The notes under the pieces were generated by a model, which did not search any database, was not told the origin of the DNA, and saw nothing but the letters and a program-made list of their open reading frames with translations. The position numbers were made by a program, and so were the translations under genes. From Ruminococcus flavefaciens (lineage in GTDB: Bacteria; Bacillota; Clostridia; Oscillospirales; Ruminococcaceae): DNA of 64,000 bases. This document shows positions 126 to 14,982 of this stretch, piece by piece. The stretch is from positions 1-64,000 of the forward strand of contig CACWHY010000003.1 of assembly GCA_902760805.1 (NCBI GenBank), read 5' to 3'. How positions within the stretch are numbered: position 1 is the first letter of the stretch; the number at the start of each line of letters is the position of its first letter.

Positions 126-914
126 TTATTCGCTGAAATCCATCTGCGCCTTGCTGCGCTGATCCGGATAAGGCATGATCCAGTATTTGGACAGGAAGCG
201 CTGGTACTCCTCCTTAACGTAGTCCGCCTTGCCCTTGGCGATCGGAACTGCGCTGTCAGCGTACCTCATGGTGATCTGATCTGAGGTCATGTGGGAGATG
301 AACACTGAGTTCACCACATAGCTTCTGTGGGGTGCAAAGAAATTCGGATAGGGAGCTAAGATCTCCAGGAAATCCTTCATAGGACCTGAGGTCTCAACAA
401 CTGTTCCGTTGTGAAGGAAAATGTCGATAACTCTTCCAGTTACCTTTGCGAAAACGATAGAGTCAACAGCAAGGGTCTGGAAATCTCCACGGATATCCTT
501 GATCTGGATACGCTTGTGGGGGTGAGCTAAGATCTCCTCACAAATATCATCCATCATAGGGAAGAAATCCCTCTGATTGAACAAATCGTTCACATAACGT
601 CTTGGCTGGACGAAAACAGTCTCATAGGTGCCGTCCTCCACCAAGTGGAAGTAAACGAAAGGCACATAGGGATCATATTTACGGATCTCACGGGAAACAT
701 CAAGTCCGGTCTTGTGTACACCGGGGTACATACCGAAGGCCATATTCAGGAAAACGATGTCGAAGCGCTGTTCCTTAGCTGCCTCTACAAGATCCTGAGG
801 TGAGGAAAAATACTGAGTTACGGCTTCATTTTCTCTATGGCCGAAGTATTCCCTTACCAGCTCTTTCATTCTGCCAAGTCTGATGCCGTCATCATCGCAA
901 AATGCAATATTCAT
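126..914 (-). CDS. LytTR-family response regulator
   Basis: This 262-residue protein looks like a two-component response regulator of the AgrA/LytR type. An N-terminal receiver (about 1-120) begins MNIAFCDDDG, the acidic pocket used for phosphoryl transfer, and is followed by a LytTR DNA-binding domain (about 140-245) with the typical phrases VDSIVFAKVTGRVIDIF and FFAPHRSYVVN. Such proteins are normally activated by a membrane histidine kinase; none lies next to it here, so its partner is elsewhere or upstream of the window. The start is supported by AAAGGGTGG just upstream of ATG and by a consensus promoter further upstream. Its target genes cannot be told from the sequence. Confidence 0.88.
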   Translation of the reverse strand: MNIAFCDDDGIRLGRMKELVREYFGHRENEAVTQYFSSPQDLVEAAKEQRFDIVFLNMAFGMYPGVHKTGLDVSREIRKYDPYVPFVYFHLVEDGTYETVFVQPRRYVNDLFNQRDFFPMMDDICEEILAHPHKRIQIKDIRGDFQTLAVDSIVFAKVTGRVIDIFLHNGTVVETSGPMKDFLEILAPYPNFFAPHRSYVVNSVFISHMTSDQITMRYADSAVPIAKGKADYVKEEYQRFLSKYWIMPYPDQRSKAQMDFSE

Positions 915-990
915 AAAACCACCCTTTTATCATTTTTTCATCGTCATTCTCATCTGTCTGATACATGAAACTCTGTTTTATGCCCCTTAA

Positions 991-1019
991 ATTATATAAC
1001 ACCAGGGCTTGTTTGTCAA
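991..1019 (-). promoter_or_regulatory. Promoter of the LytTR regulator gene
   Basis: On the minus strand, TTGACA (1014-1019) and TATAAT (991-996) are separated by exactly 17 bases, a full vegetative sigma consensus. The predicted leader is about 70 bases. The rest of the 301-base gap 915-1215 holds only the terminator near 1150-1188 and no convincing gene. Confidence 0.8.
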
Positions 1020-1149
1020 TAATTTAATACGAAAAAATGGAGATTCATGCAAAACAAACAAATATTATCTCAAAAAACCCATCACATTTCCATAACATGG
1101 CGCTCATACTACACAATCGGGTAGGTATAATTTCGCTTCCCTTAGCCAA

Positions 1150-1188
1150 AAAAATACCGAGCCTGAGATCGTGGCTCGGTGTTTTTTA
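1150..1188 (-). terminator. Bidirectional terminator after the Na+/Ca2+ exchanger gene
   Basis: Perfect 8-bp stem ACCGAGCC/GGCTCGGT (1156-1163 with 1173-1180), with an A-run on the left and a T-run on the right, so it can stop transcripts from either side. It lies about 30 bases beyond the stop of the exchanger gene. Confidence 0.75.
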
Positions 1189-1215
1189 TCAGGGTAACGC
1201 CGGAGGGTCCGCCTC

Positions 1216-2154
1216 TCAGCGCTTTATCAGATAGACTGTGTAGCCTGCATAGATCGCCAGCATGAGGGCTCCCTGCCAGCGTACCAGCTTTTTCTTCGGG
1301 GCGCACATGGCTAAGACCAGCACGCTCATTATGATAAGGGCAGCGGTGTCGATAGTATTCTCCATAGTGAAGCCCATAGGCGAGATCGTTGCGGCAATTC
1401 CCAGAACGAACAGGATATTGAAAATATTGGAGCCGATAACGTTTCCCAGAGCCATATCCACCTCATTTTTCCTTGCGGCGACTATACTTGTCACCAGCTC
1501 AGGAAGGCTCGTTCCCAGGGCAACCACAGTCATTCCGATGAGGTTATCCGACATTCCGAAGCTCTTTGCGATGTCCGAGGCGCCAACGACTACCATTTTT
1601 CCGCCGGCAGCGATAGCAGCTATTCCCAACACGATGTACAGCGCACACTTCCAGCCGGGCAGGATCTTGTAGTCCTCACCGCCCTCCGCAGAGGCACGGG
1701 CTTTGAGGGCTCCACTGACCATGATGTAAAGGAAGGCTGCAAAAACGATCAAAAGGCCGATCCCGCCCAGGCGTGGGATATTTCCCATAATCCCGCCGAT
1801 CCCCAGGAGAAGTCCTGCAACGACGATGGAGAACGGGAAGTCCCTCTTCAGCGACTCACGGCTTATGGCCAGCGGACTGAGCAGTGCGCAGACTCCGCAG
1901 ACCACCATGAGGTTGAAAATATTCGAGCCCACGGCGTTGCTTATGGAAAGGTCGTTCTTACCGGCGATCGAGGCACTGACGCTGACGGAGGTCTCCGGCA
2001 GGCTCGTTCCCATGGCAACAATGGTCATTCCGATGATAAGCGACGGCACCTTCAGCATTTTCGCAACGCTTGAGCTTCCGTCAACAAAGAAGTCGGCGCC
2101 CTTGATCAGAAGAACAAAACCGACTATCAGCAGTACATATTTCAGCATTTTCAT
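1216..2154 (-). CDS. Calcium/sodium antiporter (CaCA family, YrbG-like)
   Basis: A 312-residue, very hydrophobic protein with the two inverted halves typical of the K+-independent Na+/Ca2+ exchanger family. Each half carries the ion-binding alpha-repeat: GTSLPETSVS with AVGSNIFN near 50-85, and GTSLPELVTS with VIGSNIFN near 210-250. About ten membrane helices are expected. The length matches bacterial YrbG-like proteins (about 310-330). It probably exports Ca2+ in exchange for Na+ across the cytoplasmic membrane. The gene is monocistronic, with its own extended -10 promoter upstream and a terminator downstream; the ion specificity is inferred from the family. Confidence 0.9.
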   Translation of the reverse strand: MKMLKYVLLIVGFVLLIKGADFFVDGSSSVAKMLKVPSLIIGMTIVAMGTSLPETSVSVSASIAGKNDLSISNAVGSNIFNLMVVCGVCALLSPLAISRESLKRDFPFSIVVAGLLLGIGGIMGNIPRLGGIGLLIVFAAFLYIMVSGALKARASAEGGEDYKILPGWKCALYIVLGIAAIAAGGKMVVVGASDIAKSFGMSDNLIGMTVVALGTSLPELVTSIVAARKNEVDMALGNVIGSNIFNILFVLGIAATISPMGFTMENTIDTAALIIMSVLVLAMCAPKKKLVRWQGALMLAIYAGYTVYLIKR

Positions 2155-2180
2155 GTCCCCTTTTTTTCTTTATATTACCT

Positions 2181-2209
2181 ATTATAGCACGTCCACGGCC
2201 AAAAATCAA
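2181..2209 (-). promoter_or_regulatory. Promoter of the Na+/Ca2+ exchanger gene
   Basis: Minus-strand TTGATT (2204-2209), 17-base spacer, TATAAT (2181-2186) preceded by TGC, an extended -10 element. The leader is very short (about 20 bases), which leaves little room for RNA-based control. Confidence 0.75.
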
Positions 2210-2468
2210 CCGCAGGAGCCCCCGGAGCCGACCTGCCGCTCATTTCCGTGAAAGCTGCACAAAAATAGGACAGCCTTCTCCGGGAAAGGGCTCCATTTCC
2301 CCGCTCAGATCAGCCTTAGCAGCCACCATTAGTTGTGCAGTTTCGACAAGTTTTCAGACCTCCGGGGAAAACACGCCCCCCAGGCCTTGACAAAATGCAC
2401 CAAAAAACTCCTCTTGAGGCTATAATTCCAGACTTATCGGAGAAAATCCCACAAGGTGCTGTTTCCTC

Positions 2469-2497
2469 TTGATTTGAGGGAGAAAATGTGCTAAAAT
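2469..2497 (+). promoter_or_regulatory. Promoter of the ArsB/NhaD-type permease gene
   Basis: TTGATT (2469-2474) and TAAAAT (2492-2497) are 17 bases apart, and TG precedes the -10 by one base (extended -10). The leader is about 70 bases and contains a small GCCGG/CCGGC hairpin before the GGAGG site. A better-looking TTGACA at 2387 has no -10 at the proper distance. Apart from the two promoters, nothing else is recognisable in the 419-base gap 2155-2573. Confidence 0.6.
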
Positions 2498-2573
2498 TTG
2501 AAATGTATGCGGTCTTCTACGGAATGGCCGTGATCTTACGCCGGCGCTGACCGGCCTTCGGAGGTATATTTTT

Positions 2574-3926
2574 ATGACAGCAGCACAGATCTTTGCCGTC
2601 GTTATCTTCGTGGCGATGTTCGTTCTCATCGTCCTTGACAAGATCGAGCGGCATTTCGTTACTCTCGGCTGCGGAGCGCTCACGCTTACCGTTGTTTTCG
2701 GCATCTGCATGAGAAGCGGCTCTGCGATCTGGGACACCATCGCCATCAAGGGCTTTGCTACCAAGGAATTCTGGTATCAGGTCACTGAGAGCGAGAGCAA
2801 AGGCATCAACTGGGCCACGATCCTGTTCATCGCAGGCATGATGGTCATGGTAGAGGGCATGGCTAAGGCCGGATTTTTCCGGTGGCTTTGCATGAAGATC
2901 GCCTTCCTCGTTAAATGCAAGACTATCCCGATCTTCATCACCTTCATGGTAATGAGCGCTGTTCTCTCAATGTTCATCGACAGCATCACCGTTATCATGT
3001 TCCTTGCGGCTGTAACTATCGAGCTTGCTCAGCTGCTGAAATTCAACCCCGTCCCCATGATCCTCTCTGAGATCTTCTGCGCAAACCTGGGCGGCTCAGC
3101 TACCATGTGCGGAGATCCCCCCAACATCATCGTGGGAACATCCCTGGGCTTCTCATTCTTCGACTTCCTGACGAATACCGGCCTTGTGGCTGGTATATGC
3201 CTGGTAGTCTCCGTGATCTTCTTCTACATCGTTTTCCACAAGGAGATCGCAGGCGGCACCGACAAGCCCGTTGACATCTCTAAGCTCCCTCAGCCCAGTG
3301 AGGCTATCACCAACAAGAAGGACTTCATCATCAGCAGCATTATCTTCGGACTTGCTGTTGTGCTCCTTATCACTCATGCGACCACTCACCTGACAGTTGC
3401 AACTATCGGTCTGGCTATCGCAGTCCTGACGCTGATCACTTCCGGAAAGGACGCCCTTGAGCTCATCAAGAAGGTGGACTACAAGACCCTCCTCTTCTTC
3501 ATCGGACTCTTCGTAGTAGTGGGCGGCCTTGAAGAGACCGGTATCCTCAAGCTGATTGCAGACTTCATCGGTCGTATCAGCGACGGCAACGTTAAGCTGA
3601 TGATCGCGATCATCCTCTGGGTATCCGCTATCGCCAGCGCCTTCGTGGACAATATCCCCTTCGCAGCAACTATGGTGCCGATCATCCAGAGCCTTTCTGC
3701 TTCTGCGGGAGTTCCTATCGAGACTCTTGCATGGGCACTGTCTCTTGGTACCGACATCGGCGGAAGCGCTACTCCTATCGGAGCCTCCGCAAACGTTGTG
3801 GGCACATCTGTTGCCGCTAAAAACGGCCACCCGATCAGCTGGGGCAGATACTGCAAGAAGCTGGCTCCCGCAACGGTCATCGTTCTTGCTATCTCAACAG
3901 TTTATCTGTTCGCAAGATACTTATAA
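2574..3926 (+). CDS. ArsB/NhaD (ion transporter superfamily) membrane permease
   Basis: A 450-residue polytopic protein of the ArsB/NhaD/SLC13-like ion transporter superfamily, with about eleven membrane segments. Two symmetric signature loops are visible: GGSATMCGDPPNIIVG near 165-185 and GGSATPIGASANVVG near 395-410, each the broken-helix substrate-binding motif of the family. The second half also carries DNIPFAATM. Members move Na+/H+, arsenite or dicarboxylates; the sequence alone does not say which. It starts at ATG after GGAGGTATATTTTT, has its own extended -10 promoter, and a cytidylate-kinase-like gene follows 45 bases later. Confidence 0.85.
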   Translation: MTAAQIFAVVIFVAMFVLIVLDKIERHFVTLGCGALTLTVVFGICMRSGSAIWDTIAIKGFATKEFWYQVTESESKGINWATILFIAGMMVMVEGMAKAGFFRWLCMKIAFLVKCKTIPIFITFMVMSAVLSMFIDSITVIMFLAAVTIELAQLLKFNPVPMILSEIFCANLGGSATMCGDPPNIIVGTSLGFSFFDFLTNTGLVAGICLVVSVIFFYIVFHKEIAGGTDKPVDISKLPQPSEAITNKKDFIISSIIFGLAVVLLITHATTHLTVATIGLAIAVLTLITSGKDALELIKKVDYKTLLFFIGLFVVVGGLEETGILKLIADFIGRISDGNVKLMIAIILWVSAIASAFVDNIPFAATMVPIIQSLSASAGVPIETLAWALSLGTDIGGSATPIGASANVVGTSVAAKNGHPISWGRYCKKLAPATVIVLAISTVYLFARYL

Positions 3927-6870: not shown

Positions 6871-9249
6871 TTATTTTTCAGGCAGCTTTGTGATCAGCTT
6901 TGCATCGTATTTCTGGATAGAAAGAGCGTCGATTCCGGAAATTCCCTCTTTTCCGTCAACGTCAGCCTGCTTCTTTCCCTTTTCTGTCAGCGGGTACTTC
7001 TTGGGAAGCGCCACATACTGAAGGATAGCAACTGCGTCCTGGAGGTCGACCTTTCCGTCATCGTTGGCGTCGCCCCAGAGGATGTCATCCTTGCCTGTGG
7101 GAGTAACAGCGGTCGTAGTCGTGGGAGCTGTTGTCACGGGAGCCTTTGTGGTAGTGACCTTAGGCTCGGTCTGGGGAGCATCGCCCATTCCGTCAGCAGT
7201 TGTTCCGTCAGGCTCTGTGCCGTAGTAGAGCTCGCCGTTGATGTATGTGGGAGTGTAGATAGCCTTTACACCGCTGATAACTGTCTTCTCAACAGGCTCG
7301 GTGTCGGGGCTGCTGGATGAAAGATAGGTCGTGGTCACAGTTTTGGGATTGCCGGCTTCGTCCACCAGCTCAGCATGAGAGGGATCGTTGGAAGCGTCCC
7401 AGAAGCGCTGATACTCGGGGCAAACCAGAGCGATCATGATCTCGCACTGCTGTCTTCCCTCAGATACAGGCATTACAGCTCTTCCGTCGGGGAGAGTGAC
7501 CTCGATGTAGTAGATGTTCTTTCCGGCCTTTGTGTAGGGAGTTACCGGTGAGATAACTGCGGCAGCAACGCCGTCCTTGCCGTACATACTTCCGGCCTGG
7601 TCACGGTCGCAGCGAACAACCACTTGTGTGGGGTCGTAGCCGTGCTCCACTACCTCAGTAAGATCCATGTAGTAGCGGAAGGAGATGTTGTCCTGGATCC
7701 TTGCAGGCCAAGCGGAGTGGTTAGTGATCTTGAAGCTGAGACTTGTTCCGCTGTCGTCATCGCCCTTAACGCTGACCTCAGTGAAGAACTCGGGTCCGTC
7801 GTGAGCCTCAACGGGGGGGAAGTTAGGATCTGTCTCGCCGCCGTACTTGTCGATCATCTTACAAAGAGCAGCCGTGTAGCCGGCATTGTAGTCGGTAGCT
7901 ACCTCGTTGTTGATGTAGTTGTTTCTGTCGTCAATGTAGGAGCCGTCCTGATTGGGGCCTCCTACCAGAGCACCGTAGAGAACGTGGCGGTTGTCCAGGG
8001 GGAAGTAAAGGTCGTTCTTCCAGGAGCCGTGAGCTGTTCTGTGGTGAGCGTTGTGGGCAGGCTTGTCGCCGTAGCCGACAACGAAGCTCTGACCGGTGGG
8101 GTTGTCGCCCAGAACGTAGTTCACCTGATCCTCATAGAGCTGCTCATAGGCGGAATTGCTTCCTCCCTTGAGAACTGTATCACAGGCGACTGCTGTAATG
8201 AATGCAGAGGTCTCAGCATATCTTGCACAGCCCCATGTGTGGACATACAGCAGCTTGTCGTTGACCTTTGGGCACTCGTTGAGCAGGTAGTCAAGGTGCT
8301 TCTTCACACGTCCGATATAGAACTCGTCCTTGCTGTTGATAGCATAGAGCAGGATACCGCCCTGAGAGGTATCGTCCCAGCAGTGTGACCACTTGTACAC
8401 CAGCTCAGATGTGCCGTTCTCGTTGCCAAGATGCTTGATGAGCTCCTTGGCCTTATCCAGGTAGGTCTCGTCCTCTGTAGCGATATACAGCCAGTTTGCA
8501 GCGTAAAGGAGCTCGTCATAGAAATGACTTGAGCGGTAGAAGCCCGAAGCATCACTGTTGTTGTATACCTCGTCGCTGGGATTGGTGCAGGCCACCTCAA
8601 AGATGTGCTTTGCGTGCTTGAGGTAGTTGTCCAGCTTGCTCTGGTCAACTCTGCCCTTGAGAGCAGCGCTTCCGGCAGCAAGAGCAGCGGCCATTTCGCC
8701 GAATACAGCCGAGCAGCCCTCTGAGGACTTCAGTGCAGCACGGAAATCGGCATAAGTTCCGCCGGAATCCTCAACACCGTTCTGGAGCATCTCAACAGGG
8801 CCCCACCAGGTGTGATCCTTCTGTCCGATACCCACCTGATAAACGATCTCATCGCCCTGATCACAGGCAGCAAGGTAGTCCAGGACGAACTCCAGGTTGT
8901 TGACGTAATTCTCCATTTCTCCGCACTTCTCGATACCCTCGGGATACTGATACAGACCCCAAGCAAGGAGAGAAGCGGAATAGCCCATAGGCAGGTTGAA
9001 CTTAACGTGGTCTCCGGCATCGTACCAGCCTCCAAGCACCTCATCAGTCATGGTGGAATCGGCACGCCACTCAACACGGTTCCAGTCCGGCAGAGGTCCT
9101 GCCTGCTGGCACTCATAGAAATAAAGCGACTTTTGCAGAGCTTCAGCGTAGTTTGCACTGAACGCAGCAGCATCTGCCTTTGCAGGAACAGTAACCGATC
9201 CTGCAAGCATTACCGCACTTAAAACGGCGGCAGCGGCTTTTTTGAACAT
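6871..9249 (-). CDS. Secreted GH9 endoglucanase with CBM3c and dockerin
   Basis: A 792-residue cellulosomal cellulase. Order: signal peptide (1-26, ending VPAKADA); GH9 catalytic domain (about 28-475) with the catalytic aspartates in GGWYDAGD (Asp77/Asp80), the signature histidines in AHNAHHRTAHGS and the acid Glu449 in NNEVATDYNAG; a CBM3c-like module (about 490-640), which in this family feeds cellulose chains to the catalytic site; a Thr/Pro linker; and a C-terminal dockerin (about 725-792). The first dockerin repeat is canonical (GDANDDGKVDLQDAVAIL); the second (DVDGKEGISGIDALSIQ) departs at the fifth calcium position. It is expected to be secreted and docked onto a cohesin scaffold. The gene is monocistronic with its own promoter. 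Confidence 0.95.
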   Translation of the reverse strand: MFKKAAAAVLSAVMLAGSVTVPAKADAAAFSANYAEALQKSLYFYECQQAGPLPDWNRVEWRADSTMTDEVLGGWYDAGDHVKFNLPMGYSASLLAWGLYQYPEGIEKCGEMENYVNNLEFVLDYLAACDQGDEIVYQVGIGQKDHTWWGPVEMLQNGVEDSGGTYADFRAALKSSEGCSAVFGEMAAALAAGSAALKGRVDQSKLDNYLKHAKHIFEVACTNPSDEVYNNSDASGFYRSSHFYDELLYAANWLYIATEDETYLDKAKELIKHLGNENGTSELVYKWSHCWDDTSQGGILLYAINSKDEFYIGRVKKHLDYLLNECPKVNDKLLYVHTWGCARYAETSAFITAVACDTVLKGGSNSAYEQLYEDQVNYVLGDNPTGQSFVVGYGDKPAHNAHHRTAHGSWKNDLYFPLDNRHVLYGALVGGPNQDGSYIDDRNNYINNEVATDYNAGYTAALCKMIDKYGGETDPNFPPVEAHDGPEFFTEVSVKGDDDSGTSLSFKITNHSAWPARIQDNISFRYYMDLTEVVEHGYDPTQVVVRCDRDQAGSMYGKDGVAAAVISPVTPYTKAGKNIYYIEVTLPDGRAVMPVSEGRQQCEIMIALVCPEYQRFWDASNDPSHAELVDEAGNPKTVTTTYLSSSSPDTEPVEKTVISGVKAIYTPTYINGELYYGTEPDGTTADGMGDAPQTEPKVTTTKAPVTTAPTTTTAVTPTGKDDILWGDANDDGKVDLQDAVAILQYVALPKKYPLTEKGKKQADVDGKEGISGIDALSIQKYDAKLITKLPEK

Positions 9250-9411: not shown

Positions 9412-9462
9412 TAGTGTAACAAAATGAGCGAGGACAGAGATCTCATTGAAGGAGCGAGAGCC

Positions 9463-11625
9463 ATGAAAAGTTCTTCCAGATCACGAATTACAGCCTCTCT
9501 TTTGGGAGCTGCACTTGCCGGAGCACCATTTGGAGCGATCCCGGTAAGGGCGGAGGACGACAGCCTTTCTGCGGTGATCACCACTACCGACGGCGACAAG
9601 GTCAGCGTCAAGCTGAATGAAGAGATGTTCCTTGGGGACAGCTCTGTCTATGATCACGATATTGGTATGCTGACCGTTGCTCTGGCCAGCTGCGCCTACA
9701 ACAACAGCTCCACACCAGGTCAGGGAAAATACATCGCCGACGCTTATGAGGTGCTGGGCTTCTCCAAGGAAAAGACTGCTCTTTTCAGCTACAGCGCCGC
9801 CGAGAGGAACGATCCTTACGGCATGAGCGAGATGCAGGGAGACTCTCAGGCATTCACTATCGCAAGCCGTCAGCTGGGCGAAACTACCCTGCTTTCCATT
9901 ACATTCAGAGGTACTGACTCCACGATCCAGGAGGACGTGAACACCGACCTGATCTCAGCCTTGGCTGTGCCTTATCTTGACAGTCTGGCAGGCACGGGAT
10001 TTGCGGAATTCAGCAAAAAAGCCGCCCGGGGACTTGCGGCCTACATCGAAAACGAGCCGGAGATCGCTGAGGCTGCAAACGAGGATAAGCTGAAGATCCT
10101 GGTCACCGGACACAGCCTTGGCGCCGCCGGAGCAAACCTATTCGGCACCTATCTGGACAGCGGCGAATTTGAGCTGGGAAAGGTCTCGGCCGACGATATT
10201 TTCGTCTACACCTACGCCTGCCCCACCACCTGCGCTGAGATACCGGCGGACATCGACTACAGCAACATCATAAACATCATGAACCGCAGCGACATCGTTA
10301 CTGAGCTGCCCGGCACATTCCTCATCGACGTCGACATCGCCAACGGTCAGGTGAAGTACGCTGAGGGCTTTGCGGCCGGTCAGAAGCGGCTTTTCGACTC
10401 CCACGAAAACAAGAGCATCGTTGACTGGTCAGGCCACCACCCAGACCGCTACATACACAGCCTTGAGGAGGAGCTGACGCCGGAAGACTTCCCCACTGAC
10501 CGGCTGGAGGAGGGCTATTCTCCCCTGCTGGCGGACACCTCTGCTCAGCTGATCCAAAAGGTGACGGAGGACGCCGAGATCGGTGCTCAGTCTTTGGGAG
10601 ACATAGGCTGCTCACCAAAAACCGTTACCTCATTCAGCACCTCCTGGGGCAGCTGCTATGCAGGGCTTTTCCCGGAGGAGAAGCTGGTGATCGTCTGCGG
10701 AGAGAGGACAGACCAGGATCCTGCGGAAGCACCTGCACTGGAGGAACTCCGTGAGGAGATAGAAAGCGGCCTTGAGGACTTCCTCAGCGCTCAGGACTGT
10801 AAGGAGGGCTTCCGGCTCTTCGTGACCGGTGAAGACCTTATGGGAGGCGCTTTGGAGCTGCTGGCGGCGGATCTTCTGGACAGCGGAAGAGCCTCCTCCG
10901 CCTATGGCTACACCTTCGCTGCCCCTGCCCTTGGGCGGGAGAGCTGCGCCTCGTCGGTCTACAGTATCCACGACGTTTCCGAGCTGGTGACGGAGGGAGC
11001 TCTTGACCGTGAGATCATCGCCGGACGTGGCGGAAGGCTGATCTTGGCCAACGGCGCCGACAGCTTCTCACAGTTCACTAAGGCTCATCTCAGCGGCGAA
11101 GCGCCTTCCCCCGTGGAGGAAAGCGACATTCTCGTTTCCGTGAAGGGACCGGTCTACGCCGAGGTCAAGCAGGACGGAAAGGTCGTGGGCAAGGCGGTGG
11201 AGCCCGGCGACGGCCGGGACGTGACCCCTGTTCCTGCCATTGAGTCCGGGGAGAGCCAGTTCATTTTTCTGCCCTCTGACGGCAGCTGCAACCTCAGGCT
11301 CACCGGCCGCAGTCAGGGCAGTCTTGACCTGACCGCAGAGCAGCTCTCAGGAGGCGGCGTGAAGCAGGTCTCCGGCGCTTCGATCGAGACTCGTAAGGTC
11401 ATGGAGCTCAGGCCGGAAAGCGGTACTTCCCCGGCGGAGATCCCTCTCTACGTCCTTGACAGCGAGGGGCAGCCGGAATTCGTCGTTCAGCCTGACGGCT
11501 CCGAGAAAAAGTACCACGATCCCCGAAAAACAGCGGCTGCCGCTGCCGGGGGAGCCGGTGCTGCAGCTGCTGTAGGAGGATCTGCGGCCTTCGTCATAAG
11601 GAGGAAGAAAAATGCGAAAAGCTGA
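9463..11625 (+). CDS. Secreted, membrane-anchored class 3 lipase-like protein with a degenerate second lipase half
   Basis: 720 residues. A signal peptide (1 to about 31) is followed by an alpha/beta-hydrolase of the class 3 lipase type: oxyanion-loop phrase TFRGTDS and nucleophile elbow VTGHSLG with Ser218. The second half repeats the same layout in decayed form: VIVCGERTDQ aligns with the FRGTD region, and LFVTGEDLMGGALELLAADLLDSG aligns with the GHSLG helix with Asp458 in place of serine, followed by YGYTFAAPALG. The C-terminus is an Ala/Gly-rich membrane segment ending RRKKNAKS, without a sortase motif. ATG 9463 has AAGGAG nine bases upstream and gives a clean signal peptide. Its stop overlaps the next gene by 14 bases. 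The substrate is unknown. Confidence 0.82.
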   Translation: MKSSSRSRITASLLGAALAGAPFGAIPVRAEDDSLSAVITTTDGDKVSVKLNEEMFLGDSSVYDHDIGMLTVALASCAYNNSSTPGQGKYIADAYEVLGFSKEKTALFSYSAAERNDPYGMSEMQGDSQAFTIASRQLGETTLLSITFRGTDSTIQEDVNTDLISALAVPYLDSLAGTGFAEFSKKAARGLAAYIENEPEIAEAANEDKLKILVTGHSLGAAGANLFGTYLDSGEFELGKVSADDIFVYTYACPTTCAEIPADIDYSNIINIMNRSDIVTELPGTFLIDVDIANGQVKYAEGFAAGQKRLFDSHENKSIVDWSGHHPDRYIHSLEEELTPEDFPTDRLEEGYSPLLADTSAQLIQKVTEDAEIGAQSLGDIGCSPKTVTSFSTSWGSCYAGLFPEEKLVIVCGERTDQDPAEAPALEELREEIESGLEDFLSAQDCKEGFRLFVTGEDLMGGALELLAADLLDSGRASSAYGYTFAAPALGRESCASSVYSIHDVSELVTEGALDREIIAGRGGRLILANGADSFSQFTKAHLSGEAPSPVEESDILVSVKGPVYAEVKQDGKVVGKAVEPGDGRDVTPVPAIESGESQFIFLPSDGSCNLRLTGRSQGSLDLTAEQLSGGGVKQVSGASIETRKVMELRPESGTSPAEIPLYVLDSEGQPEFVVQPDGSEKKYHDPRKTAAAAAGGAGAAAAVGGSAAFVIRRKKNAKS

Positions 11626-12334
11626 TCTGCTGCCGGAGCTGCCTATGCCGAGCTTCTGCTCAGTTTACCCGGAGTCTGTTGCTGAGGGAGCTATGAGCGG
11701 CCAGATCTTCCTGCCGGATAATGACGAAAGATCTGCGCTGGTATGGCATTTTTGCGGCTTCGGCTTCATTTTGGGAGAGCCGGACGCCGAATTTCTGGAA
11801 GAGATCCTGCGGCTGATGCTCACCGGCGAAAGGCGGCTGGTGCTGTTCTCGGACAGCATGGCGGTGGAGGCATTTTTCCGCAGCCAAAAGGAGATCCAGG
11901 ACGGAAAACGGCTGTTTTTCCGCTATGAGGGAGGACTTCCGGAAGCAGATCCCAGCTTGCTGCCGATAAACCGTGAGCTGCTCCAGACCATGGACGGCAA
12001 GGTGGTGCCACGGATCTTCTGGGAAAACCCGGAGGAGTTCCTCAAAAACGGAATGGGCTTCTGTGAAGTCCGTGAGGGCAAACCGGCGGCGTGGGCTTTT
12101 TCCGCAGCCGTAAGCCGAAAAGAGCTGGACATCGGCGTGGAAACTGCTCCCGGCTTTCAGCGTCAGGGGCTAGCCTTGAAGACTGCCGGTGCCATGATCC
12201 GCTTGGCCATGAAGACCGGCAGAGATCCGGTCTGGGCCTGTGCCGAGACAAATGCAGGATCTCGAAAAACTGCCGAAAAATTGGGATTTATCCAGAGCGG
12301 GAGCTGCCTTACATTTCAGAAAAGATCAAACTGA
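11612..12334 (+). CDS. GNAT-family acetyltransferase
   Basis: A 240-residue protein whose C-terminal half is a GNAT fold: VETAPGFQRQGLA is the acetyl-CoA pyrophosphate-binding loop (R/Q-x-x-G-x-A type), and CAETNAGSRKTAEKLGF is the terminal motif. The N-terminal half (MRKADLLPELPMPSF onward) has no clear motif and resembles the two-domain GNAT proteins of Firmicutes. The acceptor substrate is unknown. It begins inside the 3' end of the lipase gene, with AAGGAGGAAGAAAA before ATG, so the two are translationally linked, and the macrodomain gene follows 18 bases after its stop. Confidence 0.8.
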   Translation: MRKADLLPELPMPSFCSVYPESVAEGAMSGQIFLPDNDERSALVWHFCGFGFILGEPDAEFLEEILRLMLTGERRLVLFSDSMAVEAFFRSQKEIQDGKRLFFRYEGGLPEADPSLLPINRELLQTMDGKVVPRIFWENPEEFLKNGMGFCEVREGKPAAWAFSAAVSRKELDIGVETAPGFQRQGLALKTAGAMIRLAMKTGRDPVWACAETNAGSRKTAEKLGFIQSGSCLTFQKRSN

Positions 12335-12352: not shown

Positions 12353-13432
12353 ATGCCACTTATCATTGTCAGGAACGACATCACAAAAATGGCCTGCGAC
12401 GCTATCGTAAACACCGCAAATTCCTCGCTGCTTGGGGGCGGAGGAGTTGACGGGGCGATCCACCGTGCCGCCGGGCCCGGGCTGCTGGCGGAGTGCAGAA
12501 CTCTGGGCGGCTGCGAAACCGGTCAGGCCAAGATCACCGGGGGCTACGACCTTCCGGCCAAGTACGTTATCCACACTGTGGGACCCATTTGGAACGGCGG
12601 AGGCCACGGCGAGGCTCAGCTCCTGCGCTCCTGCTATGCCGAGAGCCTGCGCCTTGCTGAGGAAAACCACTGCCAGTCCGTGGCATTTCCCATGATTTCC
12701 ACGGGAGTTTACGGCTACCCCAAGGACGAGGCCTTCCGCATTGCCGCCGACACCATCGAGGACTTCCTCAGATTCCACGAAATGGCCGTTTATCTGGTGG
12801 TCTTCGGAAGAGACTCACTCATGGTCAGCCAGGAGAGATTTGCCGATATACAGCAGTTTATCGACGATAATTATGTGGACGAGCACTCCGATGACCAGCT
12901 GGAGAGGCGCAGACGTGTACAGGGCTCCATGATGTGCAACGCAATGCCTGTCATTCCTCCTCAGGAGCCGAAAAAGAAGGCGAAAAAGCCCCTCCTGGGC
13001 GGGATCTTCGCCAGCCAGGATGAAGCCGCAGCGCCCTCCCTGCCAGTCTGCGAGGAGGCTGAGGCCGGGCTGGAAGAGGCTCTCTCCCAAATAGATGAGA
13101 GCTTCTCACAGATGCTTCTGCGGAAGATCGACGAGCTGGGAATGACCGACGTTCAGTGCTACAAAAAGGCCAACATCGACCGCAAGCTCTTCTCAAAGAT
13201 CCGCAGCGATGTCCACTACCGCCCCAAAAAGGCCACCGTTATCGCCTTTGCTGTAGCTTTAGAGCTGGACCTTGACGAAACCAAGGATATGCTCATGAAG
13301 GCTGGATTTGCCCTTTCTCACAGCAGCAAATTCGACATTATCGTGGAGTATTTCATCGCCCGGGGCAACTACAACGTCTTCGAGATCAACGAGGCGCTGT
13401 TCTCCTTCGACCAATCACTGATCGGTCAGTAA
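12353..13432 (+). CDS. MacroD-type macrodomain protein with C-terminal helical (HTH-like) domain
   Basis: 359 residues. The N-terminal 1-175 is a MacroD-type macrodomain that binds ADP-ribose: [17 protein letters not shown] (Asn20/Asn23 and the Gly loop 28-34) and the phosphate loop STGVYGYP (116-123). Such domains remove ADP-ribose from acidic residues or deacetylate O-acetyl-ADP-ribose. A charged linker (about 180-250) leads to a helical C-terminal domain (about 252-359) with [19 protein letters not shown], which reads like a lambda-repressor-type helix-turn-helix, then [18 protein letters not shown]. The gene sits 18 bases after the GNAT gene and immediately before the vWA and ADP-ribosyltransferase genes. 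GAAGGAGG precedes ATG. DNA binding by the C-terminal domain is inference. Confidence 0.85.
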
Positions 13433-13435
13433 TTT

Positions 13436-13479
13436 GTCGCCCGAAAAGCGACCAAAGGCCTCCTTCGCCGTGGTATACT
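13436..13479 (+). promoter_or_regulatory. Promoter with overlapping inverted repeat ahead of the vWA-ART pair
   Basis: TATACT at 13474-13479 is preceded by TGG (extended -10); the -35 at 13451 is weak. A perfect inverted repeat GTCGC-N7-GCGAC spans 13436-13452, covering the -35 position. Upstream, 13409-13427 is a second near-palindrome (8 of 9 pairs around a central C) within the last codons of the macrodomain gene. Either could be an operator; the first could also be a short hairpin. Confidence 0.5.
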
Positions 13480-13523
13480 TTAGTTACAGTAGAAAAAACC
13501 ACGACCAAAATGGAGGTAATATC

Positions 13524-14177
13524 ATGAAAAACAACATCACTGAAATGGTTTTCATTCTGGACAGAAGCGGCTCTATGGGCGGTCTGGAGTCCGACACGAT
13601 CGGCGGCTTCAACGGACTTATCCAAAAGCAGCGGAAGGAGGACGGCGAGGCATACGTTTCCACGATCCTCTTCGACAACGTGAGCGAGGTGCTCCACGAC
13701 AGAGTTCCCCTCAGCCAGATAAAGCCCATGACCGACGAGGAATACACCGTTCGGGGCTGCACCGCTCTGCTGGACGCTATCGGCGGAGCTATCCACCACA
13801 TCGGGAATTTCCACAAATACGCCCGCAATGAGGACGTTCCGGAGCACACCATGTTCGTCATCATCACCGACGGCATGGAGAACGCCAGCCACCGCTACAC
13901 CTATGACCAGATCAAAAAAATGATCTCTCGTCAGAAGGAGAGATACGGCTGGGAATTCCTGTTCATCGGCGCAAATATCGATGCTGCGGAGGTTGCCGGA
14001 AGAGTTGGCATCGCCCGTGAGAGAACAGCGAACTACCGCTCTGACAGCATGGGAACTCAGGTGCTCTACGAGTCTCTGGCAGCTCCCATGACCGCCATGC
14101 GCAAGGGCTGCGCAATAGATCCGAATTGGGCTGAGGAGATCGAAAACGACCTGGCCAAGAGGTCCCCAAAGCCCTGA
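13524..14177 (+). CDS. von Willebrand factor A (TerY-like) domain protein
   Basis: A 217-residue cytosolic protein consisting almost only of a vWA domain. The metal-ion-dependent adhesion site is complete: DRSGSM (Asp13, Ser15, Ser17), GCTALLD (Thr80) and ITDGMEN (Asp116). It has no signal peptide or membrane segment, which fits the TerY-like intracellular vWA group seen in stress and conflict operons. ATG 13524 has TGGAGG nine bases upstream; the longer frame starts before the predicted promoter. The ADP-ribosyltransferase gene follows after 22 bases and must share the transcript. A role as a Mg2+-dependent adaptor for the module is inference. Confidence 0.85.
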   Translation: MKNNITEMVFILDRSGSMGGLESDTIGGFNGLIQKQRKEDGEAYVSTILFDNVSEVLHDRVPLSQIKPMTDEEYTVRGCTALLDAIGGAIHHIGNFHKYARNEDVPEHTMFVIITDGMENASHRYTYDQIKKMISRQKERYGWEFLFIGANIDAAEVAGRVGIARERTANYRSDSMGTQVLYESLAAPMTAMRKGCAIDPNWAEEIENDLAKRSPKP

Positions 14178-14199
14178 ATATTCAAAAAGGAGAGAGATC

Positions 14200-14952
14200 A
14201 TGCTTACAAGTGACCAGCTTCGTGCAGTTAGGTACTACATCGGCGACGTTTCGGGGAATGACCCCTTCTGGAGCCAGCCAAAGGCCTATTTGGTGCTCAA
14301 TTCCCTGCTTTTCCCCGGCATCGAGACAGAGAAAGCTCGTGCTGCTGAGGGAAAGCTCCTTGACCCGGAGCTCCTCTCAGACACCGGGCGACTGCTAAAG
14401 GTCTACCGGGAGCTGTTCTCGGCTTTTCGCCAGAATACTGCGGAAAATACACTGCTGACCTATCGTGTGGAGCGCTGGTCAGACCACCTTGTCAACCGTT
14501 CCGCCGGAAGAACAGTCTCCTTCACCTCCACCTCTGCCGCCGGATTTCTCAGCGAATACCGTGACCGTTCCGGCATCGCCCTGCTGAGATTTAAGATCCC
14601 GGCCGGAACTCCCTGTCTCCACATGGCAAGGATCCTGCCGGAGTACGCAAAATCTCAGGAGGCCGAGGTGCTGCTGCCGCCCTTCATGGAGCTGAGCTAC
14701 AGAGAGCTGTCCATGACCGAGGAGGAGCTCAAGATCTTAGACTCAGACGGCCAGCCTCCTAAGGGCTGCTTTGAGGTGACCTGCGGAAAAGCAAGACTGC
14801 CGGAGCTTGATACAGCGGAGCTCCCACAAGAGGGCGCAGATGCCGGAAAACGCCTGTACACCGCCCTTTGCAGCGGAAGATCTCCCTCGCCGGAGGACAT
14901 TTCCGCCTATATTGAATGGAAGGGAGCCTTCCACAGGATCCTCCAAAAATAA
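14200..14952 (+). CDS. Putative ADP-ribosyltransferase (R-S-ExE type)
   Basis: A 250-residue cytosolic protein. The central region carries the three landmarks of the R-S-E ADP-ribosyltransferases in order: Arg89 in LTYRVERW, the Ser-Thr-Ser at 110-112 in SFTSTSAAGF, and Glu154-x-Glu156 in QEAEVLLPPF, where the last glutamate would be catalytic. The phrase EVLLPPF is very close to EVLIPPF of vertebrate arginine-specific ARTs. It should transfer ADP-ribose from NAD+, with the ExE form pointing to arginine acceptors. No secretion signal is present, so the target is probably inside the cell. GGAGAGAGATC precedes ATG; it is cotranscribed with the vWA gene and ends in a terminator. The family is called from motifs only. 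Confidence 0.72.
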   Translation: MLTSDQLRAVRYYIGDVSGNDPFWSQPKAYLVLNSLLFPGIETEKARAAEGKLLDPELLSDTGRLLKVYRELFSAFRQNTAENTLLTYRVERWSDHLVNRSAGRTVSFTSTSAAGFLSEYRDRSGIALLRFKIPAGTPCLHMARILPEYAKSQEAEVLLPPFMELSYRELSMTEEELKILDSDGQPPKGCFEVTCGKARLPELDTAELPQEGADAGKRLYTALCSGRSPSPEDISAYIEWKGAFHRILQK

Positions 14953-14954
14953 TG

Positions 14955-14982
14955 AAAGGGAGCTCAAACGGCTCCCTTTTTT
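14955..14982 (+). terminator. Terminator after the ADP-ribosyltransferase gene
   Basis: Perfect 9-bp stem AAAGGGAGC/GCTCCCTTT (14955-14963 with 14971-14979) followed by more T residues, three bases after the ART gene's stop. The right arm lies inside the last codons of the convergent AraC gene, so it may stop both. Confidence 0.85.

What the first reader, a model, noticed from the sequence alone, without database searches (positions are those of the whole stretch)
12353..14952. Three-gene ADP-ribose module: macrodomain-HTH, vWA and ADP-ribosyltransferase
Three adjacent genes encode a MacroD-type reader/eraser of ADP-ribose with a helical C-terminal domain, a cytosolic vWA protein with a complete MIDAS, and a small R-S-ExE ADP-ribosyltransferase. 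Seen directly: the motifs, 22-base spacing of vWA and ART, and a separate promoter for that pair. Known: DarT/DarG pairs a DNA ADP-ribosyltransferase toxin with a macrodomain antitoxin, and TerY-type vWA proteins occur in conflict and stress operons. Inference: the ART modifies a cell or phage target, the macrodomain protein reverses it and may repress the operon, and the vWA protein is an adaptor. I know of no described system with this exact trio.
Basis: partly seen in the sequence, partly recalled or inferred. Interest (0 to 1): 0.82.

Follow-up and report, generated by a model that had tools for sequence, protein, structure and literature searches.

The report
Macrodomain regulator controlling a vWA gene
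In gut Clostridia an ADP-ribose-binding enzyme is fused to a DNA-binding-like domain and is inherited with a partner gene whose promoter carries a strikingly conserved binding-site-like palindrome, which suggests a switch that reads ADP-ribose; the third gene of the reported trio looks like a local newcomer.

Summary
The macrodomain and vWA genes are a conserved pair: macro (whole or in part) lies upstream of vWA in 72 of 80 named loci. The ART is usually elsewhere: it is beside vWA in 3 of 46 examined ART-bearing genomes, and beside the whole pair only in the window and one syntenic relative.

The main finding is new. Between macro and vWA lies the palindrome TGTCGC-N7-GCGACCA, usually 20 nt before a -10 box. 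A site of this type lies before vWA or an inserted ADP-ribosylglycohydrolase (ARG) in 71 of 80 loci. It recurs where only the macro protein's C-terminal domain, a Cro/C1-like HTH, stands divergent from vWA.

Best reading: macro-HTH is a one-component regulator, probably responsive to ADP-ribose, controlling vWA, sometimes ARG and here the ART. DNA binding, ligand and sign of control are inferred. Against: helix/operator covariation is one evolutionary event, and 8 of 9 loci without the HTH in the fetched stretch still have the site. Closest published relatives: ARG-centred anti-ADP-ribosylation systems with Nudix/WYL-HTH regulators.

The parts
12353..13432 (+). macro-HTH protein, 359 aa: MacroD-type macrodomain (about residues 1-165), low-confidence linker (192-237), C-terminal Cro/C1-like helical domain (240-358)
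13067..13429 (+). C-terminal HTH-like domain; predicted recognition helix [10 protein letters not shown] (residues 275-284)
13435..13454 (+). operator-like palindrome TGTCGC-N7-GCGACCA, starting 2 bases after the macro stop codon; the only such site found in the window
13471..13479 (+). extended -10 box TGGTATACT, hexamer starting 20 nt after GCGACC; no consensus -35
13524..14177 (+). cytosolic vWA protein, 217 aa, complete conserved MIDAS
14200..14952 (+). ADP-ribosyltransferase-like protein, 250 aa, R89 / S110-T-S112 / E154-x-E156; likely co-transcribed with vWA; local addition
14954..14980 (+). intrinsic-terminator-like hairpin after the ART

Best explanation
The macrodomain protein is a one-component transcription regulator. 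Its C-terminal Cro/C1-like HTH binds, as a dimer, the palindrome TGTCGC-N7-GCGACCA centred near -42 of the vWA promoter. Its MacroD-type domain binds (and probably hydrolyses) an ADP-ribose species and sets the activity of the HTH. The target operon carries the vWA protein, in about an eighth of the sampled relatives an ADP-ribosylglycohydrolase (ARG) and, in the window, an ART. Shown here: the gene pairing, the conserved operator-like site with a mostly fixed register to a -10 box, its near-restriction to vWA/ARG promoters in the loci examined, and HTH-like sequence and helices. Inferred: that this HTH binds this site, that ADP-ribose is the signal, that the effect is activation rather than repression (site near -42, no -35 box), and that vWA acts as a peptide-binding adaptor on ADP-ribosylated or stress-damaged proteins.
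For: Pairing: macro (whole or in part) upstream on the same strand in 72 of 80 named loci; a gene with the macro C-domain beside vWA in 22 of 22 vWA-bearing genomes of the genus sample, own included (one of them, G024, has the C-domain only). Operator: a GTC[GT]C-N7-GCGAC site within 260 bp before vWA or ARG in 71 of 80 loci; 77 sites in these loci against 2-3 in each of 5 dinucleotide shuffles; the best TATAAT match starts 20 nt downstream in 98 of 152 distinct sites; orientation 74:1. Where an ARG follows macro first, the site precedes the ARG (12 sites, one shared with a vWA call; not in L160). The site also lies between vWA and a divergent gene with only the C-domain in 5 of 5 such loci, 17-26 bp before that gene's start in the 4 measured, so it does not depend on a macrodomain gene's 3' end. 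HTH: HTH_3 in 10 and HTH_19 in 6 of 37 members at E<=1 (best E 2.7e-5), hhalign 73% to five XRE proteins with the predicted recognition helices aligned, three controls 0.2-0.4%, helices at 251-261, 266-272, 277-285, 293-302, 307-316. Exact 20-mer in the genus: 34 sites in 31 of 100 genomes against 9 for the reversed control pattern; 29 before vWA, 1 before ARG, 3 elsewhere, 1 not looked at. L155, with vWA-ART but no macro hit in its genome, has no site.
Against: No binding or ligand data. Of 9 named loci with no C-domain in the fetched stretch, 8 still have a site (7 GTCGC, 1 GTCTC): L180, L220, L231 and L212 run off a contig end near by, but L195, L227 and L234 have about 8 kb upstream without macro, and their genomes were not searched. 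G009 has the site before ARG-SIMPL but no macro hit. So the site does not require a neighbouring regulator gene. The helix/operator covariation (DRxLFSKIR: 42 GTCGC, 0 GTCTC, 2 none; DKKTFSKIK: 3, 18, 2; other helices: 4 none) rests on one clade switch, one independent pair, so its Fisher p of 5e-13 is not usable. The C-domain occurs without a macrodomain (L278-L282, L113) and on other proteins (L273, L276), so the macrodomain is not obligatory. In 54 of 152 sites the best TATAAT match is at another distance (30 at 25 nt). HTH homology is sub-threshold in Pfam, the window member itself shows none, best PDB sequence hits are not significant (E 0.11), and the structure table was filled by the macrodomain. 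My odds were lowered from 0.62 to 0.60 after the recount of loci that have the site without a C-domain.
Confidence: 0.6

Rival explanations
1. One reading: a three-gene ADP-ribosylation toxin-antitoxin or defence system in which the ART modifies a target, the macro protein reverses it and represses the operon, and vWA is an adaptor.
For: All three genes are intact and adjacent; the ART has the R-S-ExE residues and is under purifying selection (dN 0.14, dS 0.69 against G423); vWA-ART adjacency is also in G423 and G429; the ART would be under the same operator.
Against: The ART lies away from both genes, within the stretches fetched, in 43 of 46 examined ART-bearing genomes, often next to resident housekeeping genes. 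No ART was found in the other 79 of 80 named vWA loci. Five congeners (G008, G021, G031, G035, G037) carry pair and ART at separate places. The L155/G429 genome keeps vWA-ART without a macro hit, unexpected if the ART needed this antitoxin. No ART match at E 1e-5 in the plasmid and phage collections.
Confidence: 0.12
2. The palindrome is an RNA hairpin (terminator or attenuator of the macro transcript), not a DNA operator.
For: In the window and many relatives it starts within a few bases of the macro stop codon, and GTCGC/GCGAC could form a 5-bp stem.
Against: It also sits between divergent genes (L278-L282), after other genes (Spx-, HD-, YgjP-like) and before ARG. It keeps a mostly fixed distance to the -10 box. 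The GTCTC variant breaks the stem without a compensating change on the GCGAC side.
Confidence: 0.08
3. The operator is read by a different regulator, and the macro-HTH protein is simply an ADP-ribosyl hydrolase co-inherited with vWA; its C-domain binds the vWA protein rather than DNA.
For: The C-domain tracks vWA even when the macrodomain is missing (L278-L282); Pfam HTH scores are weak; 8 of 9 loci without a C-domain in the fetched stretch, and G009, have the site.
Against: Loci whose C-domain has the DR..FSKI or DK..FSKI helix have the site in 42 of 44 and 21 of 23 cases, those with other helices in 0 of 4 (not independent); divergent C-domain/vWA pairs have the classic regulator-target layout; hhalign puts the variable residues on the recognition helix of XRE proteins.
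Confidence: 0.2

Closest known systems
ARG-centred systems predicted to counter viral ADP-ribosylation (PMC9503650; section 3.8 read in full)
   Same: A one-component TF with an ADP-ribose-type sensor fused to an HTH, an ARG enzyme, a vWA domain proposed as peptide-binding chaperone, Macro and HD proteins as extra parts
   Different: There the sensor is a Nudix or WYL domain, the core is ARG, and the lineages named are actinobacteria, planctomycetes and proteobacteria; here the macrodomain itself is fused to the HTH-like domain, vWA is the main target, ARG is optional (absent at the window locus), the hosts are mainly Clostridia, and an ART is coupled in the window
NrtR, Nudix-related ADP-ribose-responsive regulator (PMC6800001: listing and start of abstract only; passages in PMC9503650)
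   Same: Enzyme-like ADP-ribose-binding domain fused to a DNA-binding domain; palindromic operator (recalled)
   Different: Nudix fold and NAD biosynthesis targets; no macrodomain, no vWA
DarT/DarG toxin-antitoxin (recalled; passages in PMC9503650)
   Same: ART gene near a macrodomain gene
   Different: The ART here is an R-S-ExE type with a PF03496-like match and is not conserved beside macro; the macro protein has an HTH-like C-domain
YmdB / MacroD2 macrodomain hydrolases
   Different: No HTH-like domain in the solved chains; no vWA partner known to me

Membership tests
MacroD-type macrodomain | Macro fold with [10 protein letters not shown] loop and STGVYGYP loop (motifs recalled) | tested here: met
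MacroD-type macrodomain | Hydrolase activity on mono-ADP-ribose or O-acetyl-ADP-ribose | not testable with these tools
   needs a biochemical assay
Cro/C1 (XRE) HTH | Sequence and secondary structure of the HTH with a recognition helix | tested here: met
   (73%, E 3e-5), controls, model helices; weak for single members, PDB sequence hits not significant
Cro/C1 (XRE) HTH | Fold match to solved XRE structures | tested here: inconclusive
   the listed rows cover the macrodomain; the HTH alone was not modelled
ARG-centred anti-ADP-ribosylation system | ARG gene in the operon | tested here: not met
   no ARG among the six proteins scanned at the window locus; ARG lies between macro and vWA in 10 of 80 relatives
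ARG-centred anti-ADP-ribosylation system | Nudix- or WYL-HTH transcription factor | tested here: not met
   the candidate regulator is macro-HTH
ARG-centred anti-ADP-ribosylation system | Peptide-binding chaperone such as vWA in the operon | tested here: met
   vWA with intact MIDAS; the chaperone role itself is untested
DarTG | DarT-type DNA ART paired with a macrodomain antitoxin | tested here: not met
   Pfam gives PF03496-like only and NCBIfam nothing for the ART; macro beside ART in 2 of 46 genomes
R-S-E class ART (PF03496-like) | Conserved R, STS and ExE residues | tested here: met
   invariant in 24 of 24; PF03496 E<=0.01 in 15 of 24
R-S-E class ART (PF03496-like) | R, S and E together in an NAD cleft of the ART fold | not tested
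   structure job for A3 never accepted
MoxR-vWA systems | AAA+ MoxR ATPase beside vWA | tested here: not met
   none among the macro and ART proteins and the three further neighbours scanned (GNAT, lipase, AraC)

The most novel reading that the evidence does not exclude
A new class of bacterial one-component transcription factor, macrodomain-HTH, that senses ADP-ribose (or an ADP-ribosylated product) and switches a small, widespread Clostridial regulon of vWA, ARG and, locally, an ART through the operator TGTCGC-N7-GCGACCA: an ADP-ribosylation damage response whose DNA-binding module can also be swapped onto other sensors.
Probability: 0.5. Interest if true: 0.78.

Novelty: new variant of a known kind. 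Interest (0 to 1): 0.6.

Why it matters
If right, it gives a sequence-defined operator and regulon for a macrodomain fused to a DNA-binding domain, something I found no paper on in four searches, and makes intracellular ADP-ribose signalling in gut Clostridia testable with a gel shift and a reporter. It also supplies a search string (the operator) to find further genes of the response, and would extend a predicted anti-ADP-ribosylation strategy to Clostridia with a different sensor.

Tried and rejected
Trio as a conserved system: rejected. ART as a plasmid- or phage-borne gene: no match in 50,697 phage and 72,556 plasmid records at E 1e-5. RTas1808 (PADLOC, DRT) label of the ART: all 24 ARTs match, but the only reverse-transcriptase match in the window's genome is on another contig, and the PADLOC term gave 0 papers; no reverse-transcriptase system is claimed. 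Covariation of helix and operator as independent proof: rejected after the tree (helix 1 change, operator at least 3, one independent pair). Spx/ArsC-like gene (12 of 80 loci) as a target: the operator lies after it, before vWA. YgjP-like hydrolase as a regular partner: 4 of 80 loci, left open. PDB sequence search with vWA: one chance-level row; with the ART profile: three chance-level VapD rows. Viral-contig scan: 2 distant vWA loci. Fold searches: the rows shown for PDB cover the macrodomain part, and those for viral models look like macrodomain-bearing proteins by their names; neither bears on the HTH part. A Pfam scan of the window macro protein alone gave no HTH.

Full report
OBSERVATION. 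The three ORFs exist at the stated places. The first is a MacroD-type macrodomain with a confident C-terminal helical domain. The second is a vWA protein with a conserved MIDAS. The third is an ART-like protein with R89, S110/S112, E154/E156 invariant in 24 relatives. vWA and ART are 22 bases apart and are followed by a terminator-like hairpin.

IS THE TRIO A UNIT? No. ART relatives were found in 50 of 125 genomes of the genus, in 0 of 39 genomes sampled from other families of the order, and its PADLOC family rings in 1 of 291 genomes of the class sample, the window's own. I looked at the neighbours in 46 of the 50 ART-bearing genomes (22, the window, 23; not G387, G416, G425, G450). The ART is beside vWA in 3: the window, G423 (L338, whole region syntenic) and G429 (L339, the same contig as named locus L155, R. 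flavefaciens RUG14135, without macro there; a search of the L155 genome gave no macro hit). Elsewhere it sits by pfkA-, pdxK- or lysS-like and other resident genes (names by my reading of the sequences). G429 carries a second ART at another locus. The ART shared by window, G423 and G429 is under purifying selection.

THE CONSERVED UNIT. The vWA protein occurs in 83 of 291 genomes of the class sample, 22 of 59 of the genus sample, 215 of 50,697 phage records (214 of them under 60% identity) and 25 of 72,556 plasmid records. In 72 of these 80 the macro protein, whole or in part, lies upstream on the same strand: 38 with gaps of 81-175 bp, 34 with 267-3723 bp; the other 8 are L155, L195, L198, L212, L220, L227, L231, L234, some at contig ends. 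Genes in the larger gaps include an ADP-ribosylglycohydrolase (ARG; PF03747 E 3e-37 for one example) in 10 loci, an Spx/ArsC-like protein in 12, and a TIGR04076 protein in 2. In five other genomes (L278-L282) vWA stands divergently beside a gene that holds the C-terminal domain without a macrodomain.

THE OPERATOR-LIKE SITE. Aligning macro-vWA intergenic regions revealed TGTCGC-N7-GCGACCA. In up to 194 loci, GTCGC-N5-9-GCGAC gave 147 hits (redundant loci included), nearly all with a 7-base spacer and most 58-176 bp before vWA. Without redundancy, 71 of the 80 named loci have a GTC[GT]C-N7-GCGAC site before vWA or ARG; the nine without are L155, L159, L160, L165, L177, L185, L205, L210, L218, of which L159, L177, L185 and L205 have near-matches. 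These loci hold 77 sites against 2-3 in five dinucleotide shuffles. Of 144 sites in a larger, partly redundant set, 124 lie before vWA, 12 before ARG (one shared with a vWA call), 5 before other ORFs and 3 before nothing within 260 bp. The best TATAAT match begins 20 nt after GCGACC in 98 of 152 distinct sites, 25 nt in 30 and elsewhere in 24; with a start 7 nt after the -10 box the common spacing puts the centre near -42, where activators often bind, and no -35 hexamer is present (inference). The exact 20-mer occurs 34 times in 100 congener genomes, 29 of them before vWA; the reversed control pattern occurs 9 times. In resident ART loci two sites were seen, L035 (inside another gene) and L356 (position 462), neither before the ART.

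LINK BETWEEN DOMAIN AND SITE. The C-domain is HTH-like: HTH_3 in 10 and HTH_19 in 6 of 37 members, top PDB sequence hits are two repressor-like chains at non-significant E 0.11 and 0.45, ahead of unrelated chains, hhalign to five XRE proteins 73% with DRKLFSKIR on the recognition helix, while ART, macrodomain and vWA controls give 0.2-0.4%. In the 80 loci the helix DRxLFSKIR goes with GTCGC (42 of 44, 2 none), DKKTFSKIK with GTCTC (18) or GTCGC (3) of 23 (2 none), other helices with none (4 of 4), and 9 loci have no C-domain in the fetched stretch, of which 8 still have a site. The tree shows a single switch of helix, so this is consistent but not independent evidence. The site also lies between the divergent C-domain and vWA genes in all five such loci. 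Against: the 8 loci just named, of which L195, L227 and L234 have about 8 kb upstream without macro (their genomes were not searched), and G009 with a site before ARG-SIMPL and no macro hit. Fusobacterium L271 and Ilyobacter L272, with no macro in the 14.6 kb looked at, lack the site.

MECHANISM. Most likely the macro-HTH protein reads an ADP-ribose signal and controls vWA and, when present, ARG or ART. An ART in an operon under such control could be a writer matched to the eraser/reader, or merely a local passenger; three related species cannot decide. The vWA role as a peptide-binding adaptor rests on published proposals (PMC9503650 section 31 read in full, other passages; PMC7159879 passages).

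NOVELTY. Searches for macrodomain + helix-turn-helix + operator (0 papers), macro domain + HTH + transcription factor, macro domain + vWA domain + Firmicutes and NrtR + macro domain listed no paper whose title or shown abstract describes a macrodomain-HTH regulator; subscription papers are mostly not held. In PMC9503650 the regulators of the comparable ARG systems are Nudix- or WYL-HTH, with Macro as an accessory enzyme. I therefore call it a new variant of a known kind.

Noticed in passing
L313 (G009), 912-3018: Operator-like site directly before an ARG-SIMPL pair, preceded by a YgjP-like hydrolase, in a genome with no macro hit: an orphan operator or a missing regulator.
   Followed up: partly
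L276 1762-4317 and L273 2722-4428: The macro C-domain type is fused to a YgjP-like metal hydrolase (L276) and to an exonuclease-like protein (L273); names by my reading of the sequence.
   Followed up: no
L284 3525-4627: Two tandem small proteins (146-151 aa) with a distant copy of the same C-domain.
   Followed up: no
L199 5409-6104, L268 7657-8316, L313 2341-3018: SIMPL-domain proteins recur beside the module (Pfam for L268, by likeness for the others), in L199 and L313 downstream of an operator-like site.
   Followed up: partly
12 of 80 loci, e.g. L166 7565-7921: An Spx/ArsC-like gene is inserted between macro and the vWA operator in a group of gut Clostridia.
   Followed up: partly
window 14200-14952: The ART matches PADLOC model RTas1808 (labelled DRT) at E 1.3e-37 although the genome's only reverse-transcriptase match is on another contig; the label may mislead automatic defence annotation of Ruminococcus genomes.
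   Followed up: partly
window 6871-9249 (-) and 9424-11625 (+): A large secreted protein that looks like a dockerin-bearing GH9 cellulase (my reading) and a class 3 lipase-like protein (Pfam) lie upstream of the module; GNAT 11612-12334 ends 18 bases before macro.
   Followed up: no
L267 5423-8302 (phage record PV036457.1): A human-gut phage (Ca. Heliusvirales) carries macro-HTH, a 154-aa protein, the operator-like site, vWA and an HD protein in a row.
   Followed up: partly
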